DNA from: Bryobacteraceae bacterium
Lineage (GTDB): Bacteria > Acidobacteriota > Terriglobia > Bryobacterales > Bryobacteraceae
Assembly: GCA_019748195.1 (NCBI GenBank)
Contig: JAIEPW010000011.1
Span: 62,001 to 126,000, forward strand
Direction: 5' to 3'
Length of the DNA: 64,000 nucleotides
Program-made: the position numbers and the translations under genes
The notes under the pieces: generated by a model
Databases searched by the model: none
What the model was told of the DNA's origin: nothing
The model's input: the letters and a program-made list of their open reading frames with translations, nothing else
Shown: in pieces, positions 25,692 through 29,913 of the stretch
How the letters are laid out: every line of letters begins with the position of its first letter
Numbering within the stretch: position 1 is the stretch's first letter

Positions 25692-26099
25692 ATGAAGTCC
25701 GCCCGCACGGAACTCGAAGAACTGATGCGCACCATCCCGTTCAATGAGGCGCTGGGGATGAAGGTCGTGGAATGCGGCAAGGACTCGGTCACCCTCTCCT
25801 GTAAGCTTCGCGAAGACCTTCGGAACGTGGCCGGCGTGCTGCACGGCGGCGTCACCGCCAGCGTCGCCGATGCCGCCGTCCGCTTCGCCATCGCCTACAA
25901 GCATGGCCGCCAGCGGAAGGCGGCCACCGTCGAGCTGAAGGTCAACTATTTCCTTCCCATCTCCCACGGCAACCTCTTCGCCGAAGCCCGCCTGATCCGC
26001 GACGGAGCCAAGATCTGCGTGGGCGAGGTGAAGCTCTACGACGACCAGAAGCGCCTGGCCGGCGCCGCCCTGATCACGTACATGCTGTTGCCCGCCTAA
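25692..26099 (+). CDS. PaaI-type hotdog-fold thioesterase
   Basis: A 135-residue single hotdog domain hydrolysing acyl- or aryl-CoA thioesters. FNEALGMKVVECGKDSV begins the fold, and VLHGGVTASVADAAV is the HGG motif helix that carries the catalytic Asp/Glu position of PaaI/YigI-like enzymes. ATG 25692 gives the standard N-terminus; the frame extends further upstream but that segment lies in the divergent promoter. Its end overlaps the response regulator gene by 4 bp tail to tail. Specific acyl group unknown. Confidence 0.88.
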   Translation: MKSARTELEELMRTIPFNEALGMKVVECGKDSVTLSCKLREDLRNVAGVLHGGVTASVADAAVRFAIAYKHGRQRKAATVELKVNYFLPISHGNLFAEARLIRDGAKICVGEVKLYDDQKRLAGAALITYMLLPA

Positions 26100-26833
26100 T
26101 CTTTTTCGCCGAGAAGCGTCCTCAGCCGCGCCATGCCCGCGCGGCTGACGCGAATCTGAGTACCATCCGCCAGCACCACCACCCGCGAATCGCGCGTGTA
26201 CGGCTCGATCCGCGCGATCCGCTCAATGTTCACGATGTGCGAACGGTGGATGCGGACAAACTTCTCCGGATCCAGCTCCTGCTCCAGGCTGGAAATCGTC
26301 TGCTGCTTCAAGTACGTTTTCTTCTCGCTTCGCAGCGCGACATAGTCGTCCTGCGCTTCCACGGCGTCCAGCTTCTCCACCGGAATGATATGGACGCGGC
26401 TGCCGTCCTTCACCACCAGCCGCGCGGCGAACGTTCCCGCCGGGCGGGCCGCCTGCGCCAGTTCCGCCGCCGGCGTCCGCTCCCCCAGCCTCTGCCGCGC
26501 CCGTTGCACCGCTTTCAGAAAACGTTCCTGACTGAACGGCTTCAGCAGGTAATCCACCGCGTGCGCGTCGAACGCCTTCATCGCGTACTCGTCGTATGCG
26601 GTGACAAAGATCACCGGAATCTCCCGCCCGATCAGGTCCAGCACCTCAAAACCGGAAAGCTTCGGCATCTGCACGTCCAGAAACACAAGCTCCGGCTGCA
26701 ATTCGCCGATCGCCTTCACCGCCTCGAACCCGTTGGCGCACTCCGCCGCGATCTCCGCGCCTTCCACGGCCTGCAGAAACTCGCGGATCAACACCCGTGC
26801 CAGTTCCTCATCGTCGGCAATGATCACTTTCAT
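26096..26833 (-). CDS. LytTR-family response regulator
   Basis: A 245-residue two-component response regulator. The receiver domain (1-120) has the acidic pocket ADDEE, phospho-acceptor Asp53 in FLDVQMP, and the conserved Lys in LLKPFS. The LytTR DNA-binding domain (about 140-240) shows VEAQDDYVALR and FVRIHRSHIVNI. LytTR proteins bind paired direct repeats upstream of envelope or quorum genes. Its start overlaps the stop of the sensor kinase by 4 bp, so it is the last gene of a four-gene operon starting at 28812. Confidence 0.94.
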   Translation of the reverse strand: MKVIIADDEELARVLIREFLQAVEGAEIAAECANGFEAVKAIGELQPELVFLDVQMPKLSGFEVLDLIGREIPVIFVTAYDEYAMKAFDAHAVDYLLKPFSQERFLKAVQRARQRLGERTPAAELAQAARPAGTFAARLVVKDGSRVHIIPVEKLDAVEAQDDYVALRSEKKTYLKQQTISSLEQELDPEKFVRIHRSHIVNIERIARIEPYTRDSRVVVLADGTQIRVSRAGMARLRTLLGEKD

Positions 26834-27879
26834 CGCGAACGCTCCTCCCCGCGGTACGGAAACTCGAGCTCCACCCGGAACTCACCCTCCCGTGAGATCG
26901 TGGAAAAGCGCGCCAGCTTCCCGTAGCGCGCCTCCAGACGGCCTTTCACGTTGCGCAGCCCCAGTCCGTTGCGCCGCGCCGCGGCGCCTTCCGCGTCGAA
27001 CGGGTTCTCCACCGCAACCTGCATCGCGTCCCCGCTCACGCGCGCCCGCAGGCGAATCTCCCCCCCATCCGGCAAAGTCGAGATTCCGTGCTTCACCGCG
27101 TTCTCGATCAGCGGCTGCAGCAGCAGAGGCGGCATGCGGCAGGCATCGCATCCGGGCTCCATCTCGAAATCCAGGCGCAGGCGTCCGCCGAAGCGCACTT
27201 TCTCCACCTCCAGGTATGCTGTTACCAGTTCGATCTCCTCGCGCCAGGTCACCGAGGTCCGCTCCCCCAATCCCAATGAAGTGCGCAGGAACTCCGCCAG
27301 CCGGATGCACATCTCCCGCGCGCGAGCCGCATCGACGGCGGTCAGCGCGCTGATCGAGTTCAGGCTGTTGAACAGGAAATGCGGATTTACCTGCGCCTTC
27401 AACGCCCGCAACTCCGCGTCCCGCGCCAGCACCTCCGCCCGCCGCGACGCCGCCATCGCCGCCAGAACATAGTGCACCACCACTGCGATCGCGTAAAACA
27501 GTATGCCCAGGGCTACGACAACCCCCAGCCGGCCCGAAAAGCGCACCTCGATCCCCGGAAACAGCCGCCCCAGCAATCCGGGTCGCGCCAGAAACAGCGC
27601 CAGCGCGCCCCACAGGAGCGCTGCCAGCACCGCCGCGCCCCCGTGGTTCAGAATCAGCTTCCAGATGGGAGTCGCCTGCAGCGGCAGAAAGCGGCATTGA
27701 TACTGCGGCGACAGGCACACGAACGCGTAAAACAGGCACAACGGACCAGCCATCCCGGCGCATTCCCACGCCGTCAACCCGCCGGGAGCCCAGAACAGAT
27801 ACCCAAGCAGGATTGCCGGCGTCAGCCAGCACGCCAGGTATAGGAGCAGCCGCTTCGGATCTGCCAGTACCGGATGCAT
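26830..27879 (-). CDS. LytS/YehU-type sensor histidine kinase
   Basis: A 349-residue membrane kinase. Four hydrophobic segments occupy roughly residues 1-150 (for instance ACWLTPAILLGYLFWAP and LGVVVALGILFYAIAVVV). The His_kinase domain has the phosphorylation motif NPHFLFNSLNSI, and the ATPase domain has LLLQPLIENAVKHGI and LGLRNVKGRLEARYG. No large sensory domain is present, so signal input is probably within the membrane or from the adjacent LiaF-like proteins. It is cotranscribed with its regulator. Confidence 0.93.
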   Translation of the reverse strand: MHPVLADPKRLLLYLACWLTPAILLGYLFWAPGGLTAWECAGMAGPLCLFYAFVCLSPQYQCRFLPLQATPIWKLILNHGGAAVLAALLWGALALFLARPGLLGRLFPGIEVRFSGRLGVVVALGILFYAIAVVVHYVLAAMAASRRAEVLARDAELRALKAQVNPHFLFNSLNSISALTAVDAARAREMCIRLAEFLRTSLGLGERTSVTWREEIELVTAYLEVEKVRFGGRLRLDFEMEPGCDACRMPPLLLQPLIENAVKHGISTLPDGGEIRLRARVSGDAMQVAVENPFDAEGAAARRNGLGLRNVKGRLEARYGKLARFSTISREGEFRVELEFPYRGEERSR

Positions 27880-28931: not shown

Positions 28932-29267
28932 TTGCAGCGCCCTTCTTCGTCATCCGCGGGAACCTTCGCCGCGCCGCTGGCCGCGCTCGGCGGACTGCTT
29001 GCCGCCTCCGCTTGCTGCCTTCCGGTCGGAACCATGTTCCTGGCCGCCGGCAGCGCCGGAGCGGCCGCTTTTCTGCGGGACCTGCGGCCGTATCTGATGG
29101 TCCTCTCCGTCGCCTTGATTTGCTTCGGATTCTGGCAAGCCTCCCGCGCGAAACGATGCGGGGCCAAGCCCAACTACGCCAGCCACATGCTGCTCTGGAT
29201 CGCAGCCTTTTTCGTCGGACTTTCCCTACTGTTCCCCCAGGCCTTCGCGGACCTGCTTGCAGGCTGA
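28932..29267 (+). CDS. MerT-like mercuric transport family membrane protein
   Basis: A 111-residue membrane protein with three to four hydrophobic segments. The first helix contains LLAASACCLPVG, the paired-cysteine motif found in helix 1 of MerT, and GAAAFLRDLRPYLMVLSVALI follows as in that family. MerT brings Hg(II) across the inner membrane through cysteine exchange. The start is TTG 28932, as no ATG in this frame precedes the first helix. The candidate selenoprotein begins 4 bp downstream. No MerA, MerP or MerR gene is visible, so the real substrate is uncertain. Confidence 0.72.
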   Translation: MQRPSSSSAGTFAAPLAALGGLLAASACCLPVGTMFLAAGSAGAAAFLRDLRPYLMVLSVALICFGFWQASRAKRCGAKPNYASHMLLWIAAFFVGLSLLFPQAFADLLAG

Positions 29268-29271
29268 CAAG

Positions 29272-29913
29272 ATGAGCAAAAAACTGTACCTCATCATGGT
29301 TGCCGCGGGCGTGGTCCTGGGCTTCATCTATTTCCGGTACGGCACCAACTACACGCCTCCTGGCCAGCCTCCGCTGCTGGCCCTGGAACGCACCGACTAC
29401 ACCAAGCTGATTGACTCCTTCAATGCGGCGGCGGATTCCACCCGCGTCCTGGCGCTGCTCTCCCCCACTTGAACAACATGCTTGCAGGGGGCCTCTGCGA
29501 TCGACGCCAGCTTGAAGAAGTTTCCATCCAATCCGATCAAGTTAATCGTCGTGTGGGAACCGGTGATCGAAAGCGATCGCGCCGCGCCTACCACGCCGAT
29601 CCTGAAGCGTATCTCCGATCCGCGCGCCGCTCAGTTCTGGGACCCGGAACGCTTCATCTCCCGCATGCTGGGGGAAAAGGATGAGGAGACCATCGTCTGG
29701 GACCAGGTCTTCGTCTACCCTCCCGGCGGGAAGTGGACCCACGCTCCTCCGCAGCATCTGTACACCGGACGCCCCATCGTTAAGATCATTCCCAAACTCG
29801 AGGCCGCCCTTGCCGGACCCGCCGCCTTCCTCCGGTACAATCAACCCCATGCGAGTCCTGCTGCTGTTGCTCGGTTCGGCGATCCTGCTCCCGTCGCAAA
29901 CCCTCACCGCTGA
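29272..29913 (+). CDS. candidate thioredoxin-like selenoprotein (in-frame UGA in a UxxC motif)
   Basis: One frame runs from ATG 29272 to 29913, interrupted only by TGA at 29470-29472. Codons 1-66 encode a membrane-anchored start (LYLIMVAAGVVLGFIYF) and end VLALLSPT; after the TGA come Thr, Thr, Cys70, then LQGASAIDASLKK and a further 140 residues. Reading TGA as selenocysteine gives U67-T-T-C70, exactly where a thioredoxin-fold CxxC is expected after a beta strand. A stem-loop with a G-rich apex follows the TGA at a SECIS-like distance. Total 213 residues. It lies 4 bp after the MerT-like gene and overlaps the serine hydrolase start by 65 bp. The alternative is a nonsense mutation. Confidence 0.78.
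29482..29500 (+). promoter_or_regulatory. candidate bacterial SECIS-like stem-loop
   Basis: TTGCAG (29482-29487) pairs with CTGCGA (29495-29500) with one G-U wobble, plus a possible G-U closing pair, leaving an apical loop GGGCC. The loop starts about 16 bases after the TGA at 29470-29472. Bacterial SECIS elements lie inside the coding region just 3' of the UGA and have G in the first apical positions, which fits. The stem is short and was judged by eye only. Confidence 0.5.

What the first reader, a model, noticed from the sequence alone, without database searches (positions are those of the whole stretch)
29272..29913. Thioredoxin-like gene with in-frame UGA at the first position of a UxxC motif: probable selenoprotein
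The frame is open from 29272 to 29913 except for TGA at 29470-29472. The TGA is directly followed by Thr-Thr-Cys, giving U-T-T-C where a CxxC is expected after strand and loop (ALLSPT). The protein sequence before and after reads as one protein. A stem-loop at 29482-29500 with G-rich apex is placed where bacterial SECIS elements lie. Standard annotation would split it into two false genes or call it a pseudogene.
Basis: partly seen in the sequence, partly recalled or inferred. Interest (0 to 1): 0.85.

Follow-up and report, generated by a model that had tools for sequence, protein, structure and literature searches.

The report
MerT-linked selenocysteine thioredoxin of Acidobacteria
A bacterial gene that looks broken by a stop codon really encodes a membrane-anchored redox protein with the rare amino acid selenocysteine, and it sits beside (and in some relatives is fused to) a mercury-transporter-like protein, which hints at an undescribed way of handling toxic metals.

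Summary
Observation and reading are both right. Window 29272-29913 is one gene whose in-frame UGA (29470-29472) is read as selenocysteine. The genome has selA, selB, selD and tRNA-Sec; its SelD has its own Sec-UGA. In a scan of named genomes driven by a pattern away from the site, 78 of 80 loci kept cover it and all 78 have UGA; distant relatives carry Cys (11 of 52 phylum matches). The hairpin 29482-29500 covaries and meets the published bacterial SECIS model, as do 110 of 122 Sec sequences but 0 of 11 Cys ones. Downstream coding is under purifying selection. AlphaFold2 gives a confident TlpA/ResA-like thioredoxin fold with a membrane anchor. No Pfam, NCBIfam or PDB-sequence family matches convincingly, and a 2026 catalogue of 119 families lists none I recognise as this one. 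Beyond the finding: the gene lies 4 nt after a MerT-like gene, as in 70 of 78 loci (9 fused); 40 of 78 have a MerR-type regulator nearby. The link is patchy in distant members (MerT-like in 12 of 52). Best reading: extracytoplasmic Sec-thioredoxin partner of a MerT-like carrier for soft metals. That function is inferred, not shown.

The parts
28932..29267 (+). MerT-like three-helix membrane protein, 111 aa (TTG start assumed); stops 4 nt before the selenoprotein gene
   Evidence: its 99-aa core matches NF033556 MerTP_fusion at 6e-8 (32.5 bits, cut-off 180), as do 26 of 27 family members (best 8.7e-10); Pfam MerT only at 0.046 for the whole protein
29013..29018 (+). Cys-Cys codons in the first membrane helix of the MerT-like protein
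   Evidence: invariant in all 27 rows of A3; 68 of 71 rows, the other 3 have a gap there
29157..29159 (+). Cys codon in the positively charged (predicted cytoplasmic) loop between helices 2 and 3 of the MerT-like protein
29272..29913 (+). selenoprotein gene: membrane-anchored UxxC thioredoxin-like protein, 213 residues, terminal TGA at 29911-29913
29278..29340 (+). N-terminal helix (residues 3-23), membrane anchor
   Evidence: AF2 secondary structure; charge bias of family N-termini
29470..29472 (+). Sec-encoding UGA (residue 67)
   Evidence: TGA in 78 of the 78 loci that cover the site; in 41 of 52 phylum matches, the other 11 being Cys
29479..29481 (+). resolving Cys codon (residue 70) of UxxC
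   Evidence: invariant in A1 and A2; TGA (a second Sec) in two distant homologues
29482..29500 (+). bacterial SECIS hairpin

Best explanation
Shown by computation: 29272-29913 encodes one selenoprotein. SelB with Sec-tRNA(UCA) decodes UGA 29470-29472 with the help of the hairpin at 29482-29500 (machinery and hairpin shown; decoding itself inferred). The product is an N-terminally anchored thioredoxin-fold protein of the TlpA/ResA type whose active site is Sec-Thr-Thr-Cys. Inferred: the domain faces the periplasm and works with the MerT-like protein made just upstream, taking the place MerP has in mercury operons. The Sec/Cys pair binds or reduces a soft-metal (Hg(II)-like) thiol adduct and passes it to the Cys-Cys pair of the MerT-like carrier; in many relatives a MerR-type metal sensor gene nearby probably controls the pair.
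For: Sec machinery: tRNA-Sec 72.8 bits and ARAGORN tRNA-SeC(tca); selA 484.9, selB 361.3, selD 369 bits; SelD's own Sec in AAGUASK. tRNA-Sec in 46 of 49 genomes with a homologue. UGA in 78 of 78 covering loci of the 80 kept. Cys for Sec in 11 of 52 phylum matches. SECIS covariation 0.501 vs 0.220 shuffled, 0 of 500 shuffles as high, slid controls at most 0.176. bSECIS model met by 110 of 122 Sec, 0 of 11 Cys, 1 of 11 U-and-C-less sequences. Downstream dN/dS 0.03-0.31 in 21 of 22 hand-picked pairs, 0.43 in the other. Fold: pLDDT 91.5, DsbE/ResA-type matches, Z about 12. MerT-like partner in 70 of 78 loci, fused in 9; MerR-type regulator in 40 of 78; MerT homology. Topology by charge. The cis-proline that normally precedes the third strand is absent; Trp143-Asp144, invariant in A2, stands there (register inferred); [quoted passage not shown]
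Against: Metal function: no experiment. The MerR-type regulators tested (10) score below the cut-off of each metal-specific NCBIfam model and do not single out Hg over Zn/Cd/Cu. The window's own locus has no MerR-type match in the fetched 12.6 kb (L074); the best one is on another contig. MerA over its cut-off in only 4 of 49 genomes (35 of 49 have a match at E<=1e-100, 31 of them with no match over the cut-off) and none in this genome at that E-value, so not a classical Hg-reduction pathway. No MerT-like neighbour in 8 of 78 loci, L155 among them with only 215 bases held upstream, nor in L048, L068 and L069 of the set; and only 12 of the 52 phylum-wide matches have one on the same strand within the roughly 1.5 kb held (8 of 41 Sec, 4 of 11 Cys). 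Three U-bearing genomes gave no tRNA-Sec match (draft assemblies). 12 of 122 Sec sequences miss the bSECIS thresholds. One covariation measure, the number of pairs with a change on both sides, is not above shuffles (6 vs 5.0, 142 of 500).
Confidence: 0.5

Rival explanations
1. Same selenoprotein, but an electron relay: the MerT-like protein passes reducing equivalents across the membrane (cytoplasmic loop Cys, then Cys-Cys, then Sec-Cys), as DsbD/CcdA does (recalled), to an extracytoplasmic UxxC reductase of disulfides, peroxides or selenenyl adducts.
For: TlpA/ResA/DsbE-type fold, Cys pair in a membrane helix plus a cytoplasmic-side Cys, fusions, few MerA genes.
Against: The partner resembles MerT, and no CcdA/DsbD model is among its listed matches; metal-type MerR regulators sit near it in 40 of 78 loci.
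Confidence: 0.25
2. Same selenoprotein with a stand-alone redox function (TlpA-like reductase or peroxidase); the MerT-like gene is a lineage-specific neighbour.
For: 8 of 78 loci have no MerT-like match, and 40 of 52 phylum-wide matches have none on the same strand within about 1.5 kb; weak AhpC-TSA/Redoxin matches in one member each.
Against: 9 of 78 loci are fusions and 61 more are adjacent; two distant members are also in one frame with a MerT-like stretch (L167, L173, TGA read through there); degenerate homologues have neither U/C nor MerT (0 of 12).
Confidence: 0.2
3. The UGA is a true stop: truncated protein, pseudogene or sequencing error.
For: None beyond the presence of the stop codon.
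Against: UGA kept in 78 of 78 covering loci with SECIS covariation, Cys relatives, purifying selection downstream, complete Sec machinery.
Confidence: 0.02
4. UGA is reassigned to another residue genome-wide (alternative code).
For: None found.
Against: The MerT-like gene next door ends at TGA 29265-29267; tRNA-Sec(UCA) present; Sec/Cys exchange.
Confidence: 0.01

Closest known systems
NF045683 MerT/CopZ fusion-like heavy metal transport selenoprotein (NCBIfam)
   Same: A MerT-like membrane part joined to a selenoprotein module; 14 of 27 MerT-like proteins here match it (best 1.1e-6); the window member scores 14.2 bits against a cut-off of 375.
   Different: By its name its other module is CopZ-like; here it is a thioredoxin-fold UxxC domain with no match to that model, and most loci are two genes.
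MerT/MerP and MerTP mercury transporters (NF033556, PF02411)
   Same: Three-helix protein with Cys-Cys in helix 1 and Cys in the helix 2-3 loop (canonical layout recalled); C-terminal soluble domain in fusions; MerR-type regulators nearby.
   Different: Soluble partner is a Sec-thioredoxin, not the MerP domain; matches are weak (Pfam MerT in 7 and MerC in 12 of 27 members, best 6.2e-5 and 4.2e-4); MerA mostly missing.
TlpA/ResA/DsbE(CcmG) membrane-anchored thiol-disulfide oxidoreductases
   Same: N-terminal anchor and thioredoxin fold.
   Different: UxxC instead of CxxC; Trp-Asp where the cis-proline is expected (register inferred); no Pfam/NCBIfam thioredoxin-family match better than 0.03 in any of 37 members.
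Known UxxC thioredoxin-like selenoproteins (Trx, DsbG-like, SaoT NF040730, HUIPC NF047660, GOS_C NF045500, 'redoxin family' PF08534)
   Same: UxxC in a thioredoxin-like protein; listed in Table 1 of PMC13188914 (whole table seen).
   Different: None of the 37 members of A1 matches those NCBIfam models at E<=0.1 nor PF00085; Redoxin matched 1 of 37 at 0.077. Their representative sequences were not compared directly.

Membership tests
Bacterial selenoprotein | In-frame UGA conserved across species in one reading frame | tested here: met
   78 of the 78 covering loci among the 80 kept; 38 of 50 covering matches in the same family, the other 12 having neither Sec nor Cys
Bacterial selenoprotein | selA, selB, selC, selD in the genome | tested here: met
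Bacterial selenoprotein | bSECIS: loop 3-9 nt, stem 4-16 bp, G in first two loop positions, 16-37 nt spacing, MFE <= -7.5 (PMC13188914 Fig 2 legend) | tested here: met
   window: loop GGC, 8 bp, 17 nt, -8.8 kcal/mol; family 110 of 122 (own script); covariation
Bacterial selenoprotein | Cys-containing homologues at the Sec position | tested here: met
   11 of 52 phylum-wide matches, 0 of 11 passing the hairpin test; none among the closer relatives
Bacterial selenoprotein | Selenium shown in the protein (75Se, MS) | not testable with these tools
   needs experiment
Thioredoxin-fold, TlpA/ResA-like oxidoreductase | Thioredoxin fold with active site between strand and helix | tested here: met
Thioredoxin-fold, TlpA/ResA-like oxidoreductase | cis-proline before the third strand | tested here: not met
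   no Pro in residues 126-149 of the window protein, strand 145-149; Trp143-Asp144 invariant in A2; register inferred from secondary structure, hhalign covered only the active site
Thioredoxin-fold, TlpA/ResA-like oxidoreductase | Match to a Pfam or NCBIfam thioredoxin-family model | tested here: not met
   best AhpC-TSA 0.031, TrbB 0.046 and Redoxin 0.077, each in 1 of 37 members
MerT family (upstream partner) | Sequence match above curated cut-off | tested here: not met
   window member 32.5 bits against 180 for NF033556, 14.2 against 32.9 for Pfam MerT; bit scores of the other 26 members were not shown
MerT family (upstream partner) | Three helices, Cys-Cys in helix 1, Cys in helix 2-3 loop | tested here: met
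   helices read from the sequence, canonical MerT layout recalled
MerT family (upstream partner) | Hg(II) transport | not testable with these tools
   needs experiment
Classical mer operon | Mercuric reductase MerA present | tested here: not met
   4 of 49 genomes over the cut-off, none in this genome at E<=1e-100

The most novel reading that the evidence does not exclude
An undescribed selenium-dependent metal-handling module (MerT-like carrier plus extracytoplasmic Sec-thioredoxin, often with a MerR-type sensor) in which selenocysteine does the soft-metal chemistry that MerP's cysteines do in mercury operons, using a thioredoxin fold that has lost its metal-excluding cis-proline; the selenoprotein itself reaches across the phylum, with Cys and double-Sec (UxxU) versions.
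Probability: 0.4. Interest if true: 0.82.

Novelty: new variant of a known kind. Interest (0 to 1): 0.65.

Why it matters
It adds what looks like an uncatalogued selenoprotein family, present in 49 of 200 sampled genomes of the window's family, about a quarter of them with only Sec-less degenerate copies, that ordinary gene calling would cut in two. No Cys form was found among the closer relatives; [quoted passage not shown] It ties selenium to a MerT-type transporter by adjacency and fusion, which makes a Sec-metal function directly testable.

Tried and rejected
Single-protein scan of genome contigs found no relative; the alignment-based scan did: 85 relatives, of which the best 80 were kept. 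Pfam's Rubella capsid hit to P0001 (E 0.042) is taken as chance. Profile search of PDB sequences gave nothing. Rfam at gathering threshold on the window: none. hhalign to a TlpA-like protein near L085's gene aligned only the active-site stretch, probability 10.5%, so the cis-proline statement rests on secondary-structure register. Antisense ORFs formed clusters in the neighbour analysis and were judged artefacts. The tree labelled L197 as Sec although its site is Cys, so its Cys count is one too low; deep forks are weak and its bootstrap had not settled, so I use it only to say that Cys forms are scattered among Sec forms. Loci listed as 'fused' with a positive gap (L080, L124, L125, L140, L144) are not counted as fusions, because TGA was read through there. 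'86 of 86 TGA' is true by construction (only U-bearing loci entered) and is not used as evidence. No plasmid record matches. Considered and rejected: stop or pseudogene, sequencing error, code reassignment.

Statements on print rest on the listings (20 of 563 papers listed; 20 of 52; 10 of 10; 3 of 3; 1 of 1; 15 of 44). Papers seen: PMC13188914 (abstract, outline, passages, section 5, section 7 parts 1-2 of 3, which hold all of Table 1); PMC9312934, PMC2398784, PMC12013277, PMC1794560, PMC2757866 (passages only). The two Haft papers on new selenoproteins (2023, 2025) are not held; their family names were seen only in Table 1 of PMC13188914.

Full report
Observation. The frame 29272-29913 (+) is open apart from TGA at 29470-29472, and reads through as a 213-residue protein with ALLSPT-U-T-T-C. 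The window lies at G000:C153:62001-126000 of a 5.83-Mb, 154-contig genome, 99.67% complete.

Machinery. The genome has tRNA-Sec (Rfam 72.8 bits over a cut-off of 47; ARAGORN tRNA-SeC, anticodon tca), selA (484.9 bits), selB (361.3) and selD (369), all over their cut-offs. Its SelD itself has an in-frame TGA, HVKAAGUASKLSP, which fits the UxxK motif listed for SelD (Table 1 of PMC13188914). Of 49 genomes with a homologue of the window protein, 46 have tRNA-Sec over the cut-off; the three misses (G052, G076, G146) are draft assemblies that carry U-type genes.

Relatives. In the same family, 49 of 200 genomes have a homologue (51 matches). 38 of the 51 have TGA at the site, 12 have neither Sec nor Cys there, 1 is cut by a contig end. 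A second scan, of named genomes, driven by a pattern around VWEPVLxTD and not by the UGA site, found 85 relatives and kept 80 loci, mostly Acidobacteria by title, with a few titled Myxococcales, Anaeromyxobacter, Deltaproteobacteria, Eisenbacteria, Sumerlaeota and Acidimicrobiia; the two sets overlap. Of these 80, two are cut before the site, and the other 78 all have U-x-x-C. U67 and C70 are invariant among the 76 rows of A2. A profile search over 396 genomes of the phylum found 52 matches in 47 genomes; 41 have TGA (window included, two of them UxxU) and 11 have Cys in SP(T/S/N)CxxC. The tree needs at least seven changes for the ten Cys rows it was given (one further Cys row, L197, was mislabelled there).

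SECIS. From 158 U-bearing loci (copies between collections included), 122 distinct 39-base stretches were taken. The hairpin columns align without gaps. In 94 distinct rows, 88.4% of cells pair, 101 cells show changes on both sides, and the covariation score is 0.501 against 0.220 in shuffles (0 of 500 as high) and at most 0.176 when slid; the count of pairs with a change on both sides, 6, is not above shuffles (mean 5.0, 142 of 500). The clearest case couples the second base of the Arg/Gln codon to the third base of the Ser codon: G-C 57, A-U 26, other 3 of 86. Gly73 uses GGG in 83 of 86, while S64, P65 and T66 upstream each use at least four synonymous codons. The bSECIS model as printed in PMC13188914 (Fig. 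2 legend), coded in my own script, is met by the window (loop GGC, 8 bp, 17-nt spacing, -8.8 kcal/mol), by 110 of 122 Sec sequences, 0 of 11 Cys (four of them near-copies) and 1 of 11 U-and-C-less homologues, and by 85 of 1525 TGAs in the window. The window hairpin alone is not exceptional by energy (z -1.22).

Selection. In 22 hand-picked pairs, dN/dS downstream of the UGA is 0.03-0.31 in 21 and 0.43 in one (L095/L109, where L109 seems to have a frame break); upstream values are 0.11-0.66.

Fold. AlphaFold2 with A2 gives mean pLDDT 91.5 and pTM 0.82: an N-terminal helix (3-23), then a fold with U67 between a strand (57-63) and a helix (68-82). Foldseek and VIA-align 2 place it with DsbE, ResA, DipZ and related thioredoxin-fold proteins (Foldseek best E 3.8e-4, TM 0.42 by query and 0.62 by target length; Z 12.8 to 11.5 over the first ten rows). 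By sequence, Pfam and NCBIfam give only weak matches, each in one or two of 37 members, and the PDB none. The position that usually holds a cis-proline before the third strand is Trp143-Asp144, invariant in A2 (register inferred). [quoted passage not shown]

Partner genes. The MerT-like gene 28932-29267 ends 4 nt before the selenoprotein gene. A profile of it finds a MerT-like match in 70 of the 78 loci, within 90 nt upstream or fused; nine are true fusions into one frame (open frames printed for the matching loci). It is missing in the other 8, and in L048, L068 and L069 of the set. None of the 12 U-and-C-less loci has it within the roughly 1.4-1.5 kb held upstream. Among the 52 phylum-wide matches only 12 have a MerT-like match on the same strand within about 1.5 kb (8 of 41 Sec, the window included, and 4 of 11 Cys; one of the four lies downstream) and one more on the other strand, so the link is strong near the window and patchy far from it. 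Of 27 MerT-like proteins, 26 match NF033556 MerTP_fusion (best 8.7e-10) and 14 match NF045683, a MerT/CopZ fusion-like selenoprotein; the window member is far below both cut-offs. Charge bias puts the helix 2-3 loop in the cytoplasm (4.56 Lys/Arg per sequence) and the tail, hence the fused domain, outside; of 31 rows of the U domain that begin with Met, 28 have more positive charge before the helix than after. A MerR-type match lies within the held flank in 40 of 78 loci, nearly all within 1.5 kb on the same strand (L115 is opposite, L140 3.5 kb away, L128 1,534 bases; L108 and L131 are partial); ten tested match MerR, ZntR, CadR and CueR models, each below the cut-off of those models. Where the match is complete, three Cys stand at places that resemble the MerR-type metal ligands (ligand positions recalled; sequences). 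The window's genome has its closest such regulator on another contig, C94. MerA exceeds its cut-off in 4 of 49 genomes and is not found in this genome at E<=1e-100.

Interpretation. That this is a selenoprotein is as firm as sequence can make it (about 0.97). That it works with the MerT-like protein in the window's lineage is well supported by adjacency, fusion and joint loss. That the substrate is a soft metal is an inference from MerT homology, MerR-type regulators and the missing cis-proline (about 0.5); a transmembrane electron relay (0.25) and a stand-alone redox role (0.2) remain. Against the metal reading stand the lack of MerA, the lack of a regulator beside the window locus, and the many distant members without a MerT-like neighbour.

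Novelty. Table 1 of the 2026 review PMC13188914 (119 families; whole table seen) lists other UxxC thioredoxin-like selenoproteins and a Sec-containing mercuric transport protein, but none I could recognise as this family, and no selenoprotein model of NCBIfam release 20.0 matches any of 37 members at E<=0.1. In the listings seen of searches for selenoproteins with MerT, Acidobacteria, Acidobacteriota or Bryobacter I found no report of it. The 'redoxin family' entry (PF08534, HEU0032618.1) could not be compared, so identity with it is not excluded.

Noticed in passing
L204 (G448), L207 (G312): Two distant homologues carry TGA at both positions (SPTUPKU), a possible double-selenocysteine UxxU active site; their hairpins fail the bSECIS test.
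   Followed up: partly
L049, L051, L055-L057, L059, L060, L062, L070-L073: Degenerate homologues lost both Sec and Cys (Arg, Asp, Thr or other instead) and have no MerT-like match upstream, although their genomes keep tRNA-Sec.
   Followed up: partly
L018 (G000:C106): SelD of this genome is itself a selenoprotein (AAGUASK).
   Followed up: yes
L208 (G000:C94): A separate metal-type MerR gene next to a membrane protein with several Cys and a small CPAC thioredoxin-like stretch, without a match to the MerT-like or UxxC profiles (names from reading the sequence).
   Followed up: partly
L113 / L043: The record titled Acidimicrobiia bacterium (VFZE01000084.1, 16,810 bases) has the contig length of G031:C84, a genome placed in the window's own family, and the same MerT-like sequence: the title's taxon is probably wrong.
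   Followed up: no
L109, L143: Reading frame breaks downstream of the UGA (long frame in L109; second piece in another frame in L143): frameshifts or assembly errors.
   Followed up: no
window 26096-27879: LytTR-type response regulator and histidine kinase pair on the minus strand near the locus (names from reading the sequence).
   Followed up: no
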